Positions 1,565 through 11,783 of a stretch of 12,633 nucleotides of DNA are shown here, in pieces (the first letter of the stretch is position 1; the number at the start of each line of letters is the position of its first letter). Origin of the DNA: Bacillota bacterium (lineage in GTDB: Bacteria > Bacillota_A > Clostridia > Peptostreptococcales > Anaerovoracaceae). The notes beneath the pieces are model-generated. The model saw only the letters and a program-made list of their open reading frames with translations. It was not told the DNA's origin and made no database searches. Where the stretch lies: the NCBI GenBank assembly GCA_017556895.1, contig JAFYLX010000002.1, forward strand, positions 1 through 12,633, given 5' to 3'. The translations under genes and the position numbers were made by a program.

Positions 1565-2398
1565 ATGGAACGAAAGAAAAGGGGAATATTTGGGTTTGCA
1601 ACTAGCGATAATAACTTAGAAGTTACATATGTTTCAATTGATAAGATATTTGCGAACCCATCTCAGCCAAGAAAATATTTCAAAGATGAAGCCATAGAAG
1701 AACTATGCGGGTCAATTAAGGAGTACGGAGTGTTACAACCCATACTTCTTCGTGATGATGGAAAGGGCTATACTATAATTGCGGGTGAAAGAAGATTTAA
1801 AGCGGCTAAAATGGCCGGACTTAACAAGATACCCGCAATAATAAAGTCTATGGAGAATAGGGAAGTGGCCTTAATAGCGTTGGTTGAAAATGTTCAAAGG
1901 GAAGATTTGAATTTTCTTGAAGAAGCAAGAGGCTATAAGAAGTTAATGGATGATTTCGGCCTTACTCAGACTGAAATCGCAGAGAAAATGAATAAAAAAC
2001 AATCCACTATTTCAAATAAAATTAGGCTTCTAACTTTGCCGGAGGAAATACAAAAAAGCATACTCGAAAATGATCTTACGGAAAGACATGCAAGGGCACT
2101 GCTTAAACTTGGCGATGAAGATGACCGCAAACAGGTGATAAAGAGGATAGTTAATAATAATTTAAACGTAAAGCAGACAGAACGGTTAATAGAAGAAATA
2201 CAAAGTAAAAAAGAAGAGGCTCTTCGAAAGAAAAATAAAATAAATTATATAAGCTATAAGATATATTTAAATACACTCCGCAAGGCTTTCAATCAGATTA
2301 AAGAAATGGAAAAAAATGCCATTTTTGAGCAAGAGGACAAGGGAGAGTATTTAGAAGTCAAGATTATTCTTCCTAAAAAAGATAGATGTTTCACGTGA
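1565..2398 (+). CDS. noc: Nucleoid occlusion protein Noc (ParB/Spo0J family, CTP-binding clamp)
   Basis: Noc is a ParB paralogue that binds dispersed chromosomal sites, spreads as a CTP-dependent clamp and attaches to the membrane to keep FtsZ from dividing over the nucleoid. The 277-residue product has a short N-terminal segment MERKKRGIFGF that matches the position and style of the Noc membrane-targeting amphipathic helix. The CTP-binding boxes follow (QPRKYF at 34-39, IIAGERRF at 71-78, ENVQREDLN at 108-116), then a helix-turn-helix (KKQSTISNKIRLLTLP, 144-159). TERHARALL (172-180) and NLNVKQTERLIEEI are typical of Noc rather than ParB. Residues aligned with the four known specificity positions are Q146, K152, T157 and R174, close to the Noc set (Q,K,K,R). 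It has a purine-rich AAGGGGGG SD. Its stop codon lies inside the parS site, and the gene sits at the canonical place between rsmG and parA. Confidence 0.9.
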   Translation: MERKKRGIFGFATSDNNLEVTYVSIDKIFANPSQPRKYFKDEAIEELCGSIKEYGVLQPILLRDDGKGYTIIAGERRFKAAKMAGLNKIPAIIKSMENREVALIALVENVQREDLNFLEEARGYKKLMDDFGLTQTEIAEKMNKKQSTISNKIRLLTLPEEIQKSILENDLTERHARALLKLGDEDDRKQVIKRIVNNNLNVKQTERLIEEIQSKKEEALRKKNKINYISYKIYLNTLRKAFNQIKEMEKNAIFEQEDKGEYLEVKIILPKKDRCFT

Positions 2399-2484: not shown

Positions 2485-3255
2485 TTGGGAAAGGCAATAG
2501 CGATATTCAACCAGAAGGGCGGAGTTGGTAAGACAACTACAAATATCAACTTAGCGGCATGTCTGGCTTTAAGAGGAAAAAAAGTATTAGTTTTAGATAT
2601 AGATCCACAGGGTAATACAACAAGTGGTCTTGGCATTGCCAAGAAGGAACTTGAAGACACTGTGTATAATATTTTAGTAGATAATGATTATGATCCTAGA
2701 AATGCAATTATCGAAACGGGTGTTGAAAATCTTGACTTAATCCCTGCAAGCGTTGATTTAGCAGGTGCAGAGGTTGAATTAGTTCAGGTTGAAGGAAGAG
2801 AAAAGGCATTAAAGATAGGAATTGAAAAGATTAAGGATAACTATGACTATATCTTTATCGACTGTCCACCATCACTAGGATTACTTACAATTAACTCATT
2901 AGCAGCAGTGGATAGCGTTCTTATTCCTATTCAGTGTGAGTTCTACGCGCTGGAAGGGGTTAGCCAGCTTGTGAGCACAATTGAGTTAGTAAAGAAGAGT
3001 TTGAATCCTGCACTAGAAGTTCAGGGTGTTATTCTAAGCATGTTCGATGGCAGAACAAATTTATCTGCACAGGTTGTTCAGGAAGTAAAGAGATACTTCG
3101 GAGGAAAAGTATATTCAACTGTTATTCCACGTAACGTAAGACTCGCAGAAGCACCAAGCTATGGATTACCGATTACATTATACGATCCAAAGTCTAAAGG
3201 GGCAGAAGCATATATGGAATTCTCAGAAGAATTTATCGAACTGGAGGAAGAATAA
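2485..3255 (+). CDS. parA: Chromosome partitioning ATPase ParA (Soj)
   Basis: This is a deviant Walker-type ATPase that cycles on the nucleoid, moves or orders ParB-parS complexes and, in Bacillus, also regulates DnaA. I choose the TTG at 2485: it has a strong AAGGAGG SD (2471-2477) seven bases upstream and gives MGKAIAIFNQKGGVGKTT, the normal family N-terminus. An in-frame ATG at 2386 lies inside parS and would overlap noc and the hairpin, so it is not credible. The product is 256 residues. Motifs are Walker A KGGVGKTT (11-18), DIDPQGN (38-44), Walker B-like FIDCPPS (around D126) and the LSMFDGRTNLS and PRNVRLAEAPSYGLP segments typical of Soj. The C-terminus IELEEE encodes the GGAGG SD of parB, which starts two bases after the stop. 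Confidence 0.96.
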   Translation: MGKAIAIFNQKGGVGKTTTNINLAACLALRGKKVLVLDIDPQGNTTSGLGIAKKELEDTVYNILVDNDYDPRNAIIETGVENLDLIPASVDLAGAEVELVQVEGREKALKIGIEKIKDNYDYIFIDCPPSLGLLTINSLAAVDSVLIPIQCEFYALEGVSQLVSTIELVKKSLNPALEVQGVILSMFDGRTNLSAQVVQEVKRYFGGKVYSTVIPRNVRLAEAPSYGLPITLYDPKSKGAEAYMEFSEEFIELEEE

Positions 3256-3256
3256 T

Positions 3257-4174
3257 ATGGCGGCACCAAAAAAAGGTGGTTTAGGTAGAGGACTTGATGC
3301 TCTTTTCGCTGATGTTCCCGTTAAAGAACCGGTAAAAGATGAAAAGAAAGTGAAGAAGTCAAAGGAATCCGCAAGCGAAAATGTTAATGATGCAGATTCT
3401 GTAAAATATATAAAGATTCACGATATAATGCCGAATGTTAACCAGCCAAGAAAAACATTCAATGAAGAAAAGATAGAAGAACTGGCTGCATCAATCAAGG
3501 AACACGGCATTATTCAGCCAATCGTAGTAAGAAAGCATGATAAGGGATATGAAATCGTAGCAGGTGAAAGAAGATGGCGTGCTGCAATGAAAGCAGAGTT
3601 ATCTCAAGTTCCTTGTTTGATTAGAGAACTTGATGATGAGCAGAACATGCTTATAGCTATCATCGAAAACATGCAGAGAGAAGATCTTAACCCTATTGAA
3701 GAAGCCGAAGGTTTAAGACAGATGACTGATACTTTCGGAATGACTCAGGAACAGGTTTCAAAGAGTGTAGGTAAGAGTAGACCATACATTACTAACTGCA
3801 TGAGACTACTTAAGCTTCCTGAATATGTCAAAGACAGTATTGCAGACGGAAGACTATCAGCAGGACACGGAAGAACTCTTATTACCTTAAAGAATGAAGA
3901 AGAAAGAAAAGCTCTTTGGGAAAGAATTCTAAACGAAGGACTATCCGTACGTGAGGCAGAAAAGTTAGCGGCACAGGAAGACAAACCAAAGAAACGTAAG
4001 CCTGCGACAAAGAGAAAAGATCCGAACACTGCTAGAGTAGAGGAGGAGCTAAAGGCTGCTCTAGGAACAAAGGTAGTCATAAACAATACAGGAAATAAAG
4101 GCAAAATTGAGATAGAATATTACTCAAAAGATGAACTGGAGAGATTAATAGAACTATTGAAATCACTTGCTTAA
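3257..4174 (+). CDS. parB: Chromosome partitioning protein ParB (Spo0J)
   Basis: ParB is a CTP-dependent DNA clamp that loads at parS and recruits SMC. The start is ATG 3257, with GGAGG (3243-3247) nine bases upstream; an earlier in-frame ATG within parA has no such support. The 305-residue protein begins with the conserved KKGGLGRGLDALF motif used to stimulate ParA. It continues with a charged linker, the CTPase domain (QPRKTF from 63, VAGERRWRAA 101-110, ENMQREDLNPIEEAEG 137-152), the helix-turn-helix (VGKSRPYITNCMRLLKLP, 171-188), SAGHGRTL and a C-terminal dimerisation domain (IEIEYYSKDELERLIELLKSL). Residues at the four ParB/Noc specificity positions are R175, C181, K186 and G203; R and G are the parS-reading choices. 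It forms an operon with parA. Confidence 0.96.
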   Translation: MAAPKKGGLGRGLDALFADVPVKEPVKDEKKVKKSKESASENVNDADSVKYIKIHDIMPNVNQPRKTFNEEKIEELAASIKEHGIIQPIVVRKHDKGYEIVAGERRWRAAMKAELSQVPCLIRELDDEQNMLIAIIENMQREDLNPIEEAEGLRQMTDTFGMTQEQVSKSVGKSRPYITNCMRLLKLPEYVKDSIADGRLSAGHGRTLITLKNEEERKALWERILNEGLSVREAEKLAAQEDKPKKRKPATKRKDPNTARVEEELKAALGTKVVINNTGNKGKIEIEYYSKDELERLIELLKSLA

Positions 4175-7373: not shown

Positions 7374-8687
7374 ATGGAAAGAATACCTCCACATAATCTG
7401 GAAGCAGAGAGATCTACCATCGGGGCTGCGATGCTGAGCAAGGAAGCTCTAATGGACGTTTCCGAAGAAGTGAGAGCTGAGGACTTCTATAACGAAGCCC
7501 ACAGAGAAATCTTCGGTGCGATTATGGATTTATATCGTGACAATGTTGCGGTAGATATGCTTACAGTATGCGAAGAACTTAATAAGAAAAAAGCTCTAGA
7601 CATGGTAGGGGGAAGAGCATACATTGCTACACTTACATCCGAAGTACCTTCTACTGCCAACGCCGGTGAATATGCGAAAATCGTAGCAGAAAAAGCTATG
7701 ATGCGTCAGCTGATTTCTGTTTCAGAAGAAATCGCTGCGAAAGGGTATGACGACAAGGTGGCGGCAACAGAGCTTATCGACCGTGCAGAAGCTGATATTT
7801 TCCGCGTTGCACAGAAGCGACAGAAGAACGATTATGCCAAGATTCAGGACGTTCTTCTAAAGAACTTAAAACAGATTGACGAAGCACAGAAGACTAGCGG
7901 AAGCGTAGTAGGTCTTCCAACTGGCTTCAAGACTTTAGATGAAAAGACTTCAGGTTTACATAAATCTGACCTTATCATCCTAGCAGCTCGTCCGGGTATG
8001 GGTAAGACTGCCTTTGCACTTAATATTGCAGAGCAGAGTGCCATCAAGGCGGGCGCATCTGTCCTAATCTTCAGCTTGGAAATGTCTCAGGAACAGCTTG
8101 GCCAGAGACTTATCGCTATGCAGGCTAGAGTAGAATCCGAAAAGATCAAGAAGGGTGAACTGGATCGTAAGGATTGGGACAGAATCAATATGGCTCTAAA
8201 CGAGCTAAACGGCACAAAGATCGTAATTGATGACACACCTGGTGTATCAATTATGGAAATGCGTAACAAGTGTAGAAGACTTAAGGCTGAACAGGGTCTG
8301 GATTTAATCGTTGTAGACTACCTTCAGCTAATGACATTCGACGGAAGAGCAGACTCCAGACAGCAGGAAATTTCTGCCCTTTCAAGACACCTAAAGCTTC
8401 TTGCAAGAGAAATGGATTGTCCGGTAATCGTATTATCACAGCTTTCTAGAGCGCCTGAACTTAGACAGGATAAGAGACCTATGCTTTCCGACTTAAGAGA
8501 ATCAGGTTCCATCGAGCAGGATGCTGACATTGTAATTTTCCTATATAGAGACGACTACTATAACGAAAATACAGAAAAGCCGGGGGTATGTGAAGTACAC
8601 CTAGCAAAACACAGAAGTGGTTCCACGGATAGAGTTGAACTTACTTGGGTTGGCAGATACACTAAGTTTAGTGATAAAGCACTATAA
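7374..8687 (+). CDS. dnaB: Replicative DNA helicase DnaB (called DnaC in Bacillus)
   Basis: This hexameric 5'-3' helicase unwinds the fork and binds primase. The 437 residues comprise the N-terminal helical domain (PPHNLEAERSTIGAAML at the start), a linker, and the RecA-like motor domain. Walker A is ARPGMGKT (205-212) and Walker B is LIVVDYLQLM (D315). SQLSRAPELRQDKRPMLSDLRESGSIEQDAD and the C-terminal KHRSGSTD are diagnostic DnaB motifs. The length is normal and no intein interrupts the motor. A GGGAG SD lies nine or so bases before the ATG. It follows rplI by 48 bases and is followed by a DUF1858 gene and a DnaD-family gene, so helicase and primosome factors are likely made together. Confidence 0.97.
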   Translation: MERIPPHNLEAERSTIGAAMLSKEALMDVSEEVRAEDFYNEAHREIFGAIMDLYRDNVAVDMLTVCEELNKKKALDMVGGRAYIATLTSEVPSTANAGEYAKIVAEKAMMRQLISVSEEIAAKGYDDKVAATELIDRAEADIFRVAQKRQKNDYAKIQDVLLKNLKQIDEAQKTSGSVVGLPTGFKTLDEKTSGLHKSDLIILAARPGMGKTAFALNIAEQSAIKAGASVLIFSLEMSQEQLGQRLIAMQARVESEKIKKGELDRKDWDRINMALNELNGTKIVIDDTPGVSIMEMRNKCRRLKAEQGLDLIVVDYLQLMTFDGRADSRQQEISALSRHLKLLAREMDCPVIVLSQLSRAPELRQDKRPMLSDLRESGSIEQDADIVIFLYRDDYYNENTEKPGVCEVHLAKHRSGSTDRVELTWVGRYTKFSDKAL

Positions 8688-8704
8688 TTATGCAGGAGGT
8701 ATTT

Positions 8705-8893
8705 ATGATAACTAAGGATATGACTGTTTCCGAAGTATTGGAAAAGGATGACAAGTACGAGGCTATTTTTGAGAAAAACTTCCTGTCATGTGCAGGATGC
8801 CCCGGAGCTCAGATGGAAACGTTAGAGCAGGCGGCAGAAGGTCACGGAATTAGTCTTGAAAAACTTTTAGCAGATTTAAACGGAGCTGAATAA
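8705..8893 (+). CDS. Small DUF1858 domain CxxC protein
   Basis: This 62-residue protein matches the DUF1858 / hybrid-cluster-associated redox disulfide family: MITKDMTVSEVLEKDDKYEAI, then a conserved CAGCPGAQMETLEQAAEGHGI with a CxxC pair, and an ISLEKLLADLN tail. Members are thought to use the cysteine pair in redox or metal chemistry, but no reaction is established. I start at ATG 8705, five bases after AGGAGG (8694-8699); the in-frame ATG at 8690 is upstream of that SD. It lies 17 bases after dnaB, and its stop overlaps the dnaD start by one base, so it is part of the replication operon. Confidence 0.88.
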   Translation: MITKDMTVSEVLEKDDKYEAIFEKNFLSCAGCPGAQMETLEQAAEGHGISLEKLLADLNGAE

Positions 8894-10167
8894 TGGGCTT
8901 TAGCAGTGAAAAAATCAAAGATTTTTATCTACTGTCTACTGACGTAGAGAATATCTTTATAAACGAATATATGCCTACAGCCCCAGGAGACTATGTCAAA
9001 GTATTTCTCTACGGGCTACTGTATAGCAAGAACCAGAGTGAAATCACAAGCAAACAGTTTGCCGGCCAGCTTCAGATGACTGAAAAACAAGTTGAAGAAG
9101 CTTGGAACTACTGGGAACAGCTAGGCATTGTTTCAAAAAGATACATAATAAATACTAATGATTATGACATTGAATTTAAGAATTTGAGAGCTATGATGTA
9201 CTCAGGACTTTTAGATACTTCAAAGCCTGAACCGAGCATTGTGGTGGCAGAAGAGGATACGCCTCTTGTGAACGAAATTCTTAGAGACTTAATCCATAGC
9301 GTTGAGCAGGCTCTAGGCAGAGTAATGTCCCCAAAAGAAAGCATGGAAGTCGCCTCCTGGTATGAAGATCTTGGAGCGACAACTGAGGTTATAATGGGTG
9401 CCGTAGAATATTGCATCGAAAAGGGCAAGCGCGGCATAAACTATATGGCCAAAGTCGTACTGCAGTGGACTAAGGACGGTTTTAAGACAGCAGAGGATGT
9501 ACAGAATCACATCAGTTCTCTTGAAGCACGTTACGGAAACTATAAGAGAATCTTACAGGCCCTTGGCCTTAACAGAGCTGCCACTGAAGCCGAAAGGGAT
9601 ATGATCGACAGCTGGTTCGACGAGATGGATTATAATATGGATAGGGTTATGGATGCATGTGTCAAAGCATCATTTATTTCCAGCCCTAACATTAGATATG
9701 TAAACAAGGTTCTTGAGAACTGGGCCGAAGAGGCAAAGATCGACGGCAGAAATGTAAACAATAAGCTAGCAATCAGCAAGGCTGATTTGAATAGATACTA
9801 CGAACATCTTAGAAAAGAAGCAGAAGCTCAGGCCGAAGCTAGAAAGATGGAAGTATATGACGAATTACCAAGAATTGAGGAAGTTGACAAGGAACTCCTT
9901 AGCCTTGGTATGAAGCTTTCCAGAACATTGCTTGGAGGCAATGCTTCTGAGGTTGAAAAGACAAAGAAATTTATTGAACATTTAGAAGAAGAAAGAGCGG
10001 TATTGTTAACTGAAAACAATTATCCAGAAGACTATACTGACGTAAAGTATCTTTGCGACAAATGTAGCGACACTGGAGTAACCGACGACGGCGGACGTTG
10101 CTCATGTGTGAAGGAAAGAATGGGAGAAGCAGAATTATGGCTAAATTCAAGTTCATCGAAAAGTTAA
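8893..10167 (+). CDS. DnaD-family primosome protein with C-terminal DnaI/DnaC helicase-loader N-domain (no AAA+ domain)
   Basis: The 424-residue protein combines DnaD-type and helicase-loader-type segments. Residues about 1-110 resemble the winged-helix DDBH1 domain (YVKVFLYGLLYSKN...LQMTEKQVEEAWNYWEQLGIV). Two DDBH2 copies follow, about 125-205 and 208-280, each with the YxxxhhxxW signature (YMAKVVLQW 184-192; YVNKVLENW 269-277). From about 295 it changes to a pattern typical of the N-terminal domain of DnaI/DnaC-type loaders: YYEHLRKEAEAQAEARK, DELPRIEEVDKELLSLG (323-339), NNYPEDY and YLCDKCSDTGV, with a cysteine set C388, C391, C403, C405 (CX2C-X11-CXC). In loaders an AAA+ ATPase domain follows; here the protein stops 19 residues after the last cysteine. 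It starts by TAATG overlap, with GGAG (8882-8885) as SD, and overlaps the next gene by 31 bases. DnaD membership is sure; the loader-domain assignment is from remembered family patterns. Confidence 0.88.
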   Translation: MGFSSEKIKDFYLLSTDVENIFINEYMPTAPGDYVKVFLYGLLYSKNQSEITSKQFAGQLQMTEKQVEEAWNYWEQLGIVSKRYIINTNDYDIEFKNLRAMMYSGLLDTSKPEPSIVVAEEDTPLVNEILRDLIHSVEQALGRVMSPKESMEVASWYEDLGATTEVIMGAVEYCIEKGKRGINYMAKVVLQWTKDGFKTAEDVQNHISSLEARYGNYKRILQALGLNRAATEAERDMIDSWFDEMDYNMDRVMDACVKASFISSPNIRYVNKVLENWAEEAKIDGRNVNNKLAISKADLNRYYEHLRKEAEAQAEARKMEVYDELPRIEEVDKELLSLGMKLSRTLLGGNASEVEKTKKFIEHLEEERAVLLTENNYPEDYTDVKYLCDKCSDTGVTDDGGRCSCVKERMGEAELWLNSSSSKS

Positions 10168-11783
10168 TAAAGAAGGATGCCACGGAAGAAAAGCCTGTAA
10201 AGACTAAAGAAGAAAGCAAAAAAGAAAAGATGGATCTTCTTTTTACGGTCGGTGCGGAAGCGGTTAATCTAGTAGATGAAAGTTTAATCGAAGCGGGAGA
10301 AATTGCAGAAGCAGGCGTTCAGGGCGCTTTTAGCGTATGTGGTTCACTAGTGGACTTTGTTGACCAAACTATAGCAATTGCTGAGTGGGCGGTTACTAAG
10401 GTACTAGTATATATCGGTCGTAAGGTACACGATGCTCACGTACTAATTGATAAACACAGAAAAATTATCCTAAAGAATCTACTTGTTCTTGGCGCGGGTG
10501 CCTTAGCACTGGTAATGATCTTTTCATGGGCAACAGACTACGAATATTCATACCATGGTAGACCTTTAGGTATTGTTGAGGAACAAAGAGACGTAATTGA
10601 AATTCTAGAGCTTGCCAGCGAAGAATTATCAAAGGAATATGGCTCTAGCATTAACATCGACCCTGAGACTGATATTACATTTAGAGCTGTAGTATCAAGT
10701 GACAGAGAAATCGATGATCAGGATACAGTACTAAAGAGATTAACTTATATGGGTGAAATCAATGCCGAAGTGGCAGCGATTATGGTAGATGGTAAGCCGC
10801 TGGTTATCGTAGAGAGCCAAAAGGTTGCAGAAGAAGTATTACAGAAAATAAAGAATACTTTCGTTAAGGACGCACATAAGGTTGAATATGAATACATCGG
10901 CTTTGCAGAAGACGTTAAGGTTGAACCATATACTACAACTCTAAAGAATGTATCCGGTAAGAATGCTGCAATCCAGAAGTTATTAAGCGGTGGACAGGCT
11001 GCAGTTGTATACACTGTTAAATCAGGTGATACACTATATGATATCTGCATAGATAACGATTTAACTATGGAGGACCTAGAAACTTTAAACCCTGGAATTT
11101 CAACGGAATTGATCCGTCCGGGAGATAAGATTAATCTAAGCAAGGTAATTCCATTACTTACTATTGAGACTATCGAAGTTTCAACTTATGCAGAAAAGGT
11201 ACCATTCAAGACAGAATACAAGGATTCAGATTTCTACTACGAAGGGGAAACTGTATTAGACAGATCCGGTGTAGATGGTAAGGATAGTGTAACTGCTAGA
11301 ATTACTAAGAGAAATGGCGAAGTAATCGATAAGAAGGAACTTAAGAGAGAAAGAATCGTTGAACCGGTAAGCGAAATCTTGCTTAAAGGTACTAAGAAGG
11401 CACCACCTAAGAAGGGTACTGGAACATTCATAATGCCAACACATGGTGTTCTAACTTCCGAATTCGGTTATAGATGGGGTAAGAACCACGACGGTATCGA
11501 TATCGGTGCTTCAACAGGTACAGCTATCAGAGCGGCAGACGGTGGTACTGTAACTCTTTCTGAGTACTACTACGGTTACGGTCTAACAATCATCATCGAC
11601 CACGGTGGCGGTTACAAGACTTTATACGGACATAACAATGCTAACTACGTAACAGTAGGACAGCAAGTATTCCAGGGACAGACAATCGGTGAAGTAGGTA
11701 ACACTGGTTACTCAACAGGACCTCACTTACACTTCGAAATCATGTACCACGGTACTCCGGTTAATCCGTATAACTACTTCTAG
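10137..11783 (+). CDS. Membrane-anchored LysM-G5-M23 peptidoglycan endopeptidase
   Basis: This 548-residue cell-wall hydrolase has a predicted cytoplasmic N-terminal segment (1-108), one membrane helix (about 110-132: NLLVLGAGALALVMIFSW) and an external C-terminal part. Outside are an uncharacterised region (about 135-285), a LysM domain (VYTVKSGDTLYDICIDN..., 292-338), a G5 domain (about 342-425) and an M23/LytM domain (about 435-540). All metal and catalytic residues are present: H451 and D455 in HDGID, H499 in LYGHN, H530 and H532 in PHLHFE. It should cleave peptide cross-bridges, unlike degenerate M23 proteins such as EnvC or many SpoIIQ proteins. I start at ATG 10137 with GGGAG (10122-10126) ten bases upstream, inside the dnaD 3' end; an in-frame ATG at 10098 lacks an SD. 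A terminator follows. Confidence 0.92.
   Translation: MAKFKFIEKLIKKDATEEKPVKTKEESKKEKMDLLFTVGAEAVNLVDESLIEAGEIAEAGVQGAFSVCGSLVDFVDQTIAIAEWAVTKVLVYIGRKVHDAHVLIDKHRKIILKNLLVLGAGALALVMIFSWATDYEYSYHGRPLGIVEEQRDVIEILELASEELSKEYGSSINIDPETDITFRAVVSSDREIDDQDTVLKRLTYMGEINAEVAAIMVDGKPLVIVESQKVAEEVLQKIKNTFVKDAHKVEYEYIGFAEDVKVEPYTTTLKNVSGKNAAIQKLLSGGQAAVVYTVKSGDTLYDICIDNDLTMEDLETLNPGISTELIRPGDKINLSKVIPLLTIETIEVSTYAEKVPFKTEYKDSDFYYEGETVLDRSGVDGKDSVTARITKRNGEVIDKKELKRERIVEPVSEILLKGTKKAPPKKGTGTFIMPTHGVLTSEFGYRWGKNHDGIDIGASTGTAIRAADGGTVTLSEYYYGYGLTIIIDHGGGYKTLYGHNNANYVTVGQQVFQGQTIGEVGNTGYSTGPHLHFEIMYHGTPVNPYNYF

What the first reader, a model, noticed from the sequence alone, without database searches (positions are those of the whole stretch)
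9775..10167. DnaD protein carries the N-terminal domain of a DnaI/DnaC helicase loader but no AAA+ motor
From about residue 295 the DnaD-family protein switches to a pattern I know from the N-terminal domain of clostridial DnaC/DnaI loaders: a charged helix, ELPRIEEVDKELLSLG, a NNYPEDY turn and YLCDKCSDTGV...CSC with four cysteines. In DnaI this domain contacts the DnaB-type helicase and holds zinc. In ordinary loaders an AAA+ domain follows; here the frame stops at once and a peptidoglycan hydrolase gene begins inside it. No AAA+ loader occurs elsewhere in the window, although dnaB is two genes upstream. The fusion would tether DnaD directly to the helicase. Either helicase loading here uses an ATPase-free adaptor, or the AAA+ part was lost by deletion and is supplied elsewhere.
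Basis: partly seen in the sequence, partly recalled or inferred. Interest (0 to 1): 0.75.

Follow-up and report, generated by a model that had tools for sequence, protein, structure and literature searches.

The report
DnaD fused to motorless helicase loader
In one family of gut-type Clostridia the protein that normally places the DNA-unwinding ring on the chromosome appears to have lost its ATP-burning motor, and its remaining part is welded onto a neighbouring replication protein, which suggests that these bacteria start copying their DNA without the usual loading engine.

Summary
Residues 296-410 of the 424-aa DnaD protein (8893-10167) match the N-terminal domain of the clostridial DnaC-type helicase loader (NF005304, E 9e-27; profile-profile probability 100). 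No AAA+ motor follows. It is no artefact: the 80 best genome loci kept (of 132 with a relative) all carry the tail, including Emergencia, Anaerovorax, Sinanaerobacter and Eubacterium minutum. In 50 of 50 outgroup loci examined, dnaD and a complete loader are separate adjacent genes. A complete loader is over the family cut-off in 0 of 148 genomes of the fused family, 143 of 198 in the order and 121 of 148 in the class; DciA is found in 0 of 148. The fused proteins also lack the C-terminal peptide of unfused DnaDs (0 of 81; 25 of 25 held-out unfused have it), the positional counterpart of the B. subtilis DnaB tail that binds DnaI's AAA+ domain. Best reading: a fusion replaced docking by a covalent link, leaving an ATPase-free, DnaD-tethered loader. 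Helicase binding, metal binding and loading are inferred. The link to the Bacillus DnaI N-domain is not supported by profiles.

The parts
7374..8687 (+). dnaB-type replicative helicase (437 aa), the presumed cargo
   Evidence: Pfam DnaB_C E 6.5e-110 and DnaB N-domain E 1.3e-33; a dnaB homologue lies upstream of the fusion in 77 of 77 loci analysed
8690..8893 (+). DUF1858 small protein between dnaB and dnaD; role unknown
   Evidence: Pfam DUF1858 E 3.1e-17; tblastn match in 29 of 77 loci
8893..10167 (+). dnaD fused to the N-domain of a helicase loader, 424 aa
   Evidence: conserved full length in protein clusters and genome loci
8941..9201 (+). DDBH1-like N-terminal part (residues ~17-103)
   Evidence: secondary structure of the full-length AlphaFold2 model, pLDDT 79.4, pTM 0.37, with residues 6-20 under 50; name by analogy with CD3653 (PMC5204125 passages)
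9298..9510 (+). first DnaB_2/DDBH2 domain (residues 136-206)
   Evidence: Pfam DnaB_2, best of two stretches; PDB chains 8ojj and 2zc2 (DnaD proteins) match here
9535..9744 (+). second DnaB_2/DDBH2 domain (residues ~215-284, approximate)
   Evidence: second stretch of DnaB_2 (limits not printed); helices 200-284 in the model
9778..10122 (+). N-terminal domain of a clostridial DnaC-type helicase loader (residues 296-410), presumed helicase-binding
   Evidence: NF005304 positions 6-122 of 330, E 8.9e-27; hhalign probability 100; AlphaFold2 of residues 285-424 pLDDT 92.7, pTM 0.79
10054..10107 (+). four-cysteine motif C388-x2-C391 ... C403-x-C405, presumed metal site
   Evidence: all four invariant in 29 full-length fusions, 58 tails and 94 tails plus loader N-domains
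10137..11783 (+). M23 peptidase gene with LysM and G5 domains, starts inside dnaD (31-base overlap); next gene, not part of the machine
   Evidence: M23 homologue downstream in 64 of 77 loci

Best explanation
An ancestor of Anaerovoracaceae-type Clostridia had dnaD and a DnaC-type loader as neighbouring genes. A fusion joined DnaD, minus its linker and C-terminal peptide, to the loader's N-terminal domain, and the AAA+ domain was lost. SHOWN (within the samples): the fusion and its family-wide presence, clustering of fused rows on one side of a branch, absence of a complete loader and of DciA, and co-loss of the DnaD C-terminal peptide. INFERRED: the tail still binds the DnaB-type helicase, as loader N-domains do; DnaD, brought to the origin by DnaA, carries such domains and so recruits and opens or holds the helicase ring over single-stranded DNA without ATP hydrolysis by a loader. 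The covalent link does the job that docking of the DnaD-type C-terminal peptide on the loader's AAA+ domain does elsewhere, which is why both halves of that docking pair vanished together.
For: Tail equals loader N-domain. Separate adjacent dnaD-loader genes in 50 of 50 outgroup loci (the loci the tool gave, i.e. the best-scoring 30 matches of the order and 20 of the class, some near-duplicates). Complete loader over cut-off: 0 of 148 family genomes, 143 of 198 order, 121 of 148 class; order and class samples include family members. In the order sample 42 of 198 genomes have a DnaD match running through the tail and none of the 42 is among the 143 with a loader (hand count). DciA 0 of 148, controls ring in 7 of 14. 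Fused rows lie on one side of a branch, support 99, in quick tail and DnaD-body trees of 41 fused (40 of 80 loci plus the window) and 50 separate rows. Median identity to the window 48.9% for the tail, 43.8% for the DnaD body, 80 loci. DnaD C-terminal peptide: HMM trained on 25 unfused scores 5.9-52.1 bits in 25 of 25 held-out unfused and at most 0.4 in 81 fused. Precedents: the helicase-binding domain of E. coli DnaC alone loads DnaB at about half the wild-type efficiency and stimulates unwinding (PMC8213410, passages); the B. subtilis DnaB C-terminal tail binds the DnaI AAA+ domain (PMC13326638, section 32); C. difficile loader CD3654, whose gene lies beside the DnaD-like CD3653, binds the helicase (PMC5204125, passages).
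Against: No tool here tests helicase binding, metal or loading. The clostridial N-domain is not detectably related to the Bacillus DnaI N-domain or to a solved fold, and the paper passages seen do not say which domain of CD3654 binds the helicase. The C. difficile helicase-loader interaction is ATP-dependent. E. coli DnaC's HBD loads less well than the whole protein, and DnaI's N-domain is stated not to be homologous to it (PMC3791466), so the precedent is by analogy. DnaC-like AAA+ proteins of phage or ICE type exist in some family genomes and were not excluded as helpers there. The window's own genome is not held and no completeness was given for the others. Ten of 198 order genomes show neither loader over cut-off nor an A1 match, unexplained.
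Confidence: 0.68

Rival explanations
1. Split loader: the AAA+ function is supplied in trans by another ATPase, either DnaA (brought close by DnaD) or DnaC-like AAA+ proteins of resident mobile elements, so loading still uses loader-type ATP turnover.
For: PF01695-type AAA+ matches occur in 101 of 148 family genomes (DnaA and IS21 IstB included), and some genomes hold ~280-aa DnaC-like proteins. DnaA is a relative of DnaC and rings with the loader profile.
Against: In the 11 non-DnaA loci read, neighbours look mobile by eye: serine recombinase, conjugation-type, terminase, tail sheath, IS21 transposase; for L101 and L102 PHROGs confirm terminase and tail sheath; for L121 and L126 only phage-type replication genes support this. 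In E. minutum the matches are DnaA, the fusion, ClpB and a Clp-like protein; in E. timonensis DnaA and the fusion. The DnaD peptide expected to dock a loader AAA+ domain is gone. DnaA as a helper is not excluded.
Confidence: 0.15
2. The tail is a retained helicase tether or recruiter only; the ring loads by itself or through an unknown loader, so the protein is an adaptor rather than a loader.
For: [quoted passage not shown] that some replicative helicases self-load is recalled.
Against: A domain as conserved as the DnaD body, with four invariant cysteines, in a lineage without a detected loader, suggests an essential step. Loaders beyond NF005304, PF01695 and DciA were not searched for.
Confidence: 0.14
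3. Artefact: frameshift, misassembly or truncated gene whose correction would give a normal loader.
Against: Same architecture in the 80 loci kept, from many assemblies including a 1.9-Mb E. minutum record; no AAA+ remnant in the 80 loci and the window (best E 0.092, 35 of 50 loader AAA+ halves as queries).
Confidence: 0.01

Closest known systems
Clostridial DnaC-type helicase loader, NF005304/PRK06835 (C. difficile CD3654 is the studied counterpart by gene order)
   Same: N-terminal domain with CxxC-DTG-CxC; beside DnaD and, in C. difficile, near the helicase gene
   Different: Fusion lacks the whole AAA+ domain (94 of 215 bits) and is the C-terminal part of DnaD
Clostridial DnaD-like protein with DDBH1-DDBH2-DDBH2 (C. 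difficile CD3653; DnaB_2 family)
   Same: Domain order of residues 1-284
   Different: Lacks the 47-67 aa linker and C-terminal peptide of the 50 unfused proteins examined; carries the loader N-domain instead
Bacillus subtilis DnaB-DnaI pair
   Same: DDBH-type protein physically coupled to a loader; DnaB C-terminal tail binds the DnaI AAA+ domain (PMC13326638)
   Different: Two proteins, non-covalent, loader keeps AAA+; its N-domain (PF07319) is not detectably related to the tail here
DciA (PF05258), ATP-independent helicase operator
   Same: Loading without a loader ATPase (as proposed here)
   Different: Different family; no match in any of 148 family genomes searched
Isolated helicase-binding domain of E. 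coli DnaC
   Same: Laboratory demonstration that a loader without its AAA+ part can still load DnaB
   Different: Engineered fragment of another N-domain type; here the state is natural and fused to an initiation protein

Membership tests
NF005304/PRK06835 clostridial loader | N-terminal domain (profile 1-122) | tested here: met
   E 8.9e-27, profile 6-122; hhalign probability 100
NF005304/PRK06835 clostridial loader | AAA+ domain with Walker A (profile ~123-330) and score over 215 bits | tested here: not met
   94 bits, no match beyond 122; frame stops at 10167
DnaD / DnaB_2 family (PF07261, TIGR01446) | DnaB_2 domain over cut-off | tested here: met
   101.6 bits against 22; TIGR01446 75.9 against 24.95
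DnaD of related Clostridia | linker plus conserved C-terminal peptide | tested here: not met
   HMM at most 0.4 bits in 81 fused proteins, 5.9-52.1 in 25 held-out unfused
Bacillus DnaI | DnaI_N domain (PF07319) | tested here: not met
   absent from hits of the window protein at E <= 1 and its tail at E <= 10; not among the 25 families printed of 83 for 58 tails and of 110 for 41 loader N-domains; hhalign probability 0.5 and 0.3 against 60 of 120 DnaI proteins, AAA+ halves 98.3
Bacillus DnaI | fold of the solved DnaI N-domain | tested here: inconclusive
DciA (PF05258) | PF05258 domain in the protein or genome | tested here: not met
   no hit in the protein; 0 of 148 family genomes
Helicase loader (function) | binds DnaB-type helicase and loads it on ssDNA | not testable with these tools
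Zinc-binding loader N-domain | metal bound by four cysteines | not testable with these tools
   cysteines invariant in 94 sequences; metal not shown

The most novel reading that the evidence does not exclude
A whole bacterial family has naturally evolved an ATPase-free helicase loader by stripping the AAA+ motor from a DnaC-type loader and welding the remaining helicase-binding domain to the DnaA-recruited protein DnaD. That would be a distinct, third kind of chromosomal loading strategy beside AAA+ DnaC/DnaI and DciA.
Probability: 0.6. Interest if true: 0.85.

Novelty: new variant of a known kind. Interest (0 to 1): 0.72.

Why it matters
[quoted passage not shown] Here a family inside a loader-bearing order appears to have lost the motor while keeping the N-domain, joined to DnaD. 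It is a natural test of what the AAA+ domain is for, and suggests that its indispensable role in this lineage was docking to the DnaD-type protein, which a covalent link can replace.

Tried and rejected
Artefact or frameshift: rejected by conservation and no AAA+ remnant (only 35 of 50 loader frames passed the motif filter and served as queries; 15 of 81 sequences had hits at E <= 1, best 0.092). Possible full-length DnaD-loader fusions in outgroups, suggested by 672-730 aa 'open frames': the loci read show two separate frames with a stop between. AAA+ hits of ~250-300 aa in family genomes as hidden loaders: 11 loci read, mobile-looking; the further PF01695 loci L180-L199 were not read. Weak E. 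minutum hits: one is ClpB over its cut-off, the other is Clp-like. Fold search of the tail: no usable PDB match; phmmer and profile searches of the PDB with the tail found nothing credible. The C-terminal peptide of unfused DnaD did not find the B. subtilis DnaB entry by profile; the parallel is by position. Literature: searches listed no paper on this fusion (titles and abstract starts seen); PMC3670212 is not held. The own genome could not be searched or laid.

Full report
WHAT IS THERE. The ORF at 8893-10167 encodes 424 residues. Residues 136-206 and a second stretch match DnaB_2. AlphaFold2 of the whole protein suggests an N-part, two helical DDBH2-like parts and a C-terminal domain (pLDDT 79.4, pTM 0.37, so only the outline is used). 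Residues 296-410 match NCBIfam NF005304, the clostridial DnaC-type loader, over positions 6-122 of 330 with E 8.9e-27, at 94 bits against a cut-off of 215. The frame ends soon after, and the M23 peptidase gene starts inside it, overlapping by 31 bases.

IT IS A CONSERVED FAMILY TRAIT. A protein search returned 703 relatives; the 120 listed are 418-455 aa except one of 398, 47-99% identical, and cover 92-100% of the query. A search scored on residues 290-424 alone found 195 proteins; the 120 listed all carry the DnaD Pfam domain. In genome contigs 132 stretches encode a relative and the best 80 were kept. All 80 carry the tail: 77 with CxxC..CxC, 3 with CxxC..CPVC. These 80 are not an unbiased sample, because one of the two search peptides lies in the tail. 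Named members include Emergencia timonensis, Anaerovorax odorimutans, Sinanaerobacter chloroacetimidivorans and Eubacterium minutum. A dnaB homologue lies upstream in 77 of 77 loci analysed and an M23 homologue downstream in 64 (the three CPVC loci were not in that count). The four cysteines are invariant in 29 full-length fusions and 58 tails. Median identity to the window is 48.9% for the tail and 43.8% for the DnaD body over 80 loci.

WHERE IT CAME FROM. For complete loaders the tool gave loci for the best 30 matches in the order and 20 in the class. In all 50 a DnaD gene lies directly upstream of the loader gene on the same strand, in a separate frame. The distance from the DnaD stop to the loader's first methionine is -14 to +22 bases in 42 of 50; in eight it is 124-233, probably because the real start is not ATG. 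The fused tails align with those loader N-domains with hhalign probability 100. In quick trees of 41 fused and 50 separate rows the fused rows form one side of a branch with support 99, for the tail (few columns) and for the DnaD body (with a long-branch warning). This is consistent with one fusion event but does not prove it.

THE MOTOR IS NOT FOUND IN THE FAMILY. Complete loaders over the cut-off: 0 of 148 genomes of the family of E. timonensis, 143 of 198 of its order, 121 of 148 of its class (129 of 148 at E <= 1e-40). The family sample includes G005, the genome of L002, which is 65% identical to the window protein. Of the 148, at least 123 show the N-domain match in the printed, truncated list, nearly all in frames of 400-511 aa and four in shorter frames (hand count; the DnaD part was not tested in that call); five had no match. 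In the order sample 42 of 198 genomes have a DnaD match running through the tail, and none of these 42 is among the 143 with a loader (hand count). Of the remaining 13, G071 and G132 carry DnaD and tail in one frame with split matches, G053 shows a DnaD near a contig end, and ten show neither; those ten are unexplained. DciA: 0 of 148, with 7 of 14 controls ringing. PF01695-type AAA+ matches occur in 101 of 148 family genomes: by frame size mostly DnaA, plus IS21 IstB and ~280-aa DnaC-like proteins. DnaA was confirmed for E. minutum and E. timonensis, and the two weak E. minutum matches are ClpB and a Clp-like protein. Eleven other AAA+ loci were read: neighbours are recombinases, conjugation-type genes, terminase, tail sheath or an IS21 transposase by eye. 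PHROGs confirm terminase and tail sheath in L101 and L102, call four of the AAA+ proteins tested DnaC-like phage loaders, and for L121 and L126 give only phage-type replication genes as context. Genome completeness was not given, so the absence claim rests on numbers and on the contrast with the sister groups.

A SECOND LOSS AT THE SAME PLACE. The 50 unfused DnaDs carry 47-67 residues after the second DnaB_2 domain, ending in a conserved peptide with consensus K-F-H-N-F-x-x-R...Y-x-x-x-E-L-E (28 sequences). A regular expression found it in 40 of 50 unfused and 0 of 81 fused. An HMM trained on 25 found it in 25 of 25 held-out proteins (5.9-52.1 bits) and gave at most 0.4 bits in 81 fused proteins. 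In B. subtilis the C-terminal tail of the DDBH-type protein DnaB binds the AAA+ domain of DnaI (PMC13326638, section 32). The clostridial peptide is not recognisably the same sequence, but by position it is the counterpart. The fused lineage thus lost a probable docking peptide and the docking surface together, as expected if a covalent link replaced them. This is an inference from co-loss.

HOW IT PROBABLY WORKS. In DnaC and DnaI the N-domain binds the helicase and the AAA+ part handles ATP and ssDNA (PMC8213410, PMC3791466, PMC13326638; passages and section 32). C. difficile CD3654, whose gene lies beside the DnaD-like CD3653, binds the helicase in an ATP-dependent manner (PMC5204125, passages). 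The helicase-binding domain of E. coli DnaC alone loads DnaB at about half efficiency and stimulates unwinding (PMC8213410, passages). The fusion would bring such domains to the origin on DnaD, which in the B. subtilis model is recruited by DnaA (PMC13326638, section 36). Oligomerisation of the fusion, helicase binding, ring opening, metal binding and the role of DnaA are not shown here.

LIMITS AND CORRECTIONS. The clostridial N-domain is not detectably related to Bacillus DnaI's: PF07319 is not hit by the window protein or its tail and is not among the families printed for 58 tails and 41 loader N-domains. hhalign probability is under 1, with 60 of the 120 DnaI proteins listed, although the AAA+ halves align at 98.3. 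The well-predicted tail model (pLDDT 92.7) has no notable PDB match. Five literature searches listed no report of this fusion in the library held, which lacks most subscription journals. The 2016 survey mentions 49 species with neither DciA nor dnaC/dnaI (PMC5109545, passages); its species list could not be read.

VERDICT. The architecture and the lack of a complete loader across the family sample are firm. The functional reading, an ATPase-free DnaD-tethered loader, is the best supported but untested.

Noticed in passing
L130-L179, last ~34 residues of the unfused DnaD frames: Conserved C-terminal peptide after a variable linker in clostridial DnaD proteins, a candidate docking motif for the loader AAA+ domain; not found in 81 fused proteins.
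   Followed up: yes
G192, G198, G200, G214, G238, G295, G299, G304, G306, G316 (order sample): Ten genomes of the order show neither a complete loader over cut-off nor a DnaD match; could be incomplete genomes or another unusual loading arrangement.
   Followed up: partly
G374:C433:10534-11400 and G400:C20:6553-7212: Clostridia genomes whose loader match lies in unusually long frames (558 and 506 aa); possible other fusions.
   Followed up: no
window 8690-8893: DUF1858 gene between dnaB and dnaD, overlapping dnaD by one base; matched in 29 of 77 related loci.
   Followed up: partly
window 1565-2398 and 3161-4174: Two ParB-like genes flank a ParA-like gene; the first may be a Noc-type protein (names for the second and for ParA recalled from the reading frames, not tested).
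   Followed up: no
L043, L053, L059: Three loci replace the tail's CxC by CPVC, a CxxC-type spacing of the second cysteine pair.
   Followed up: no
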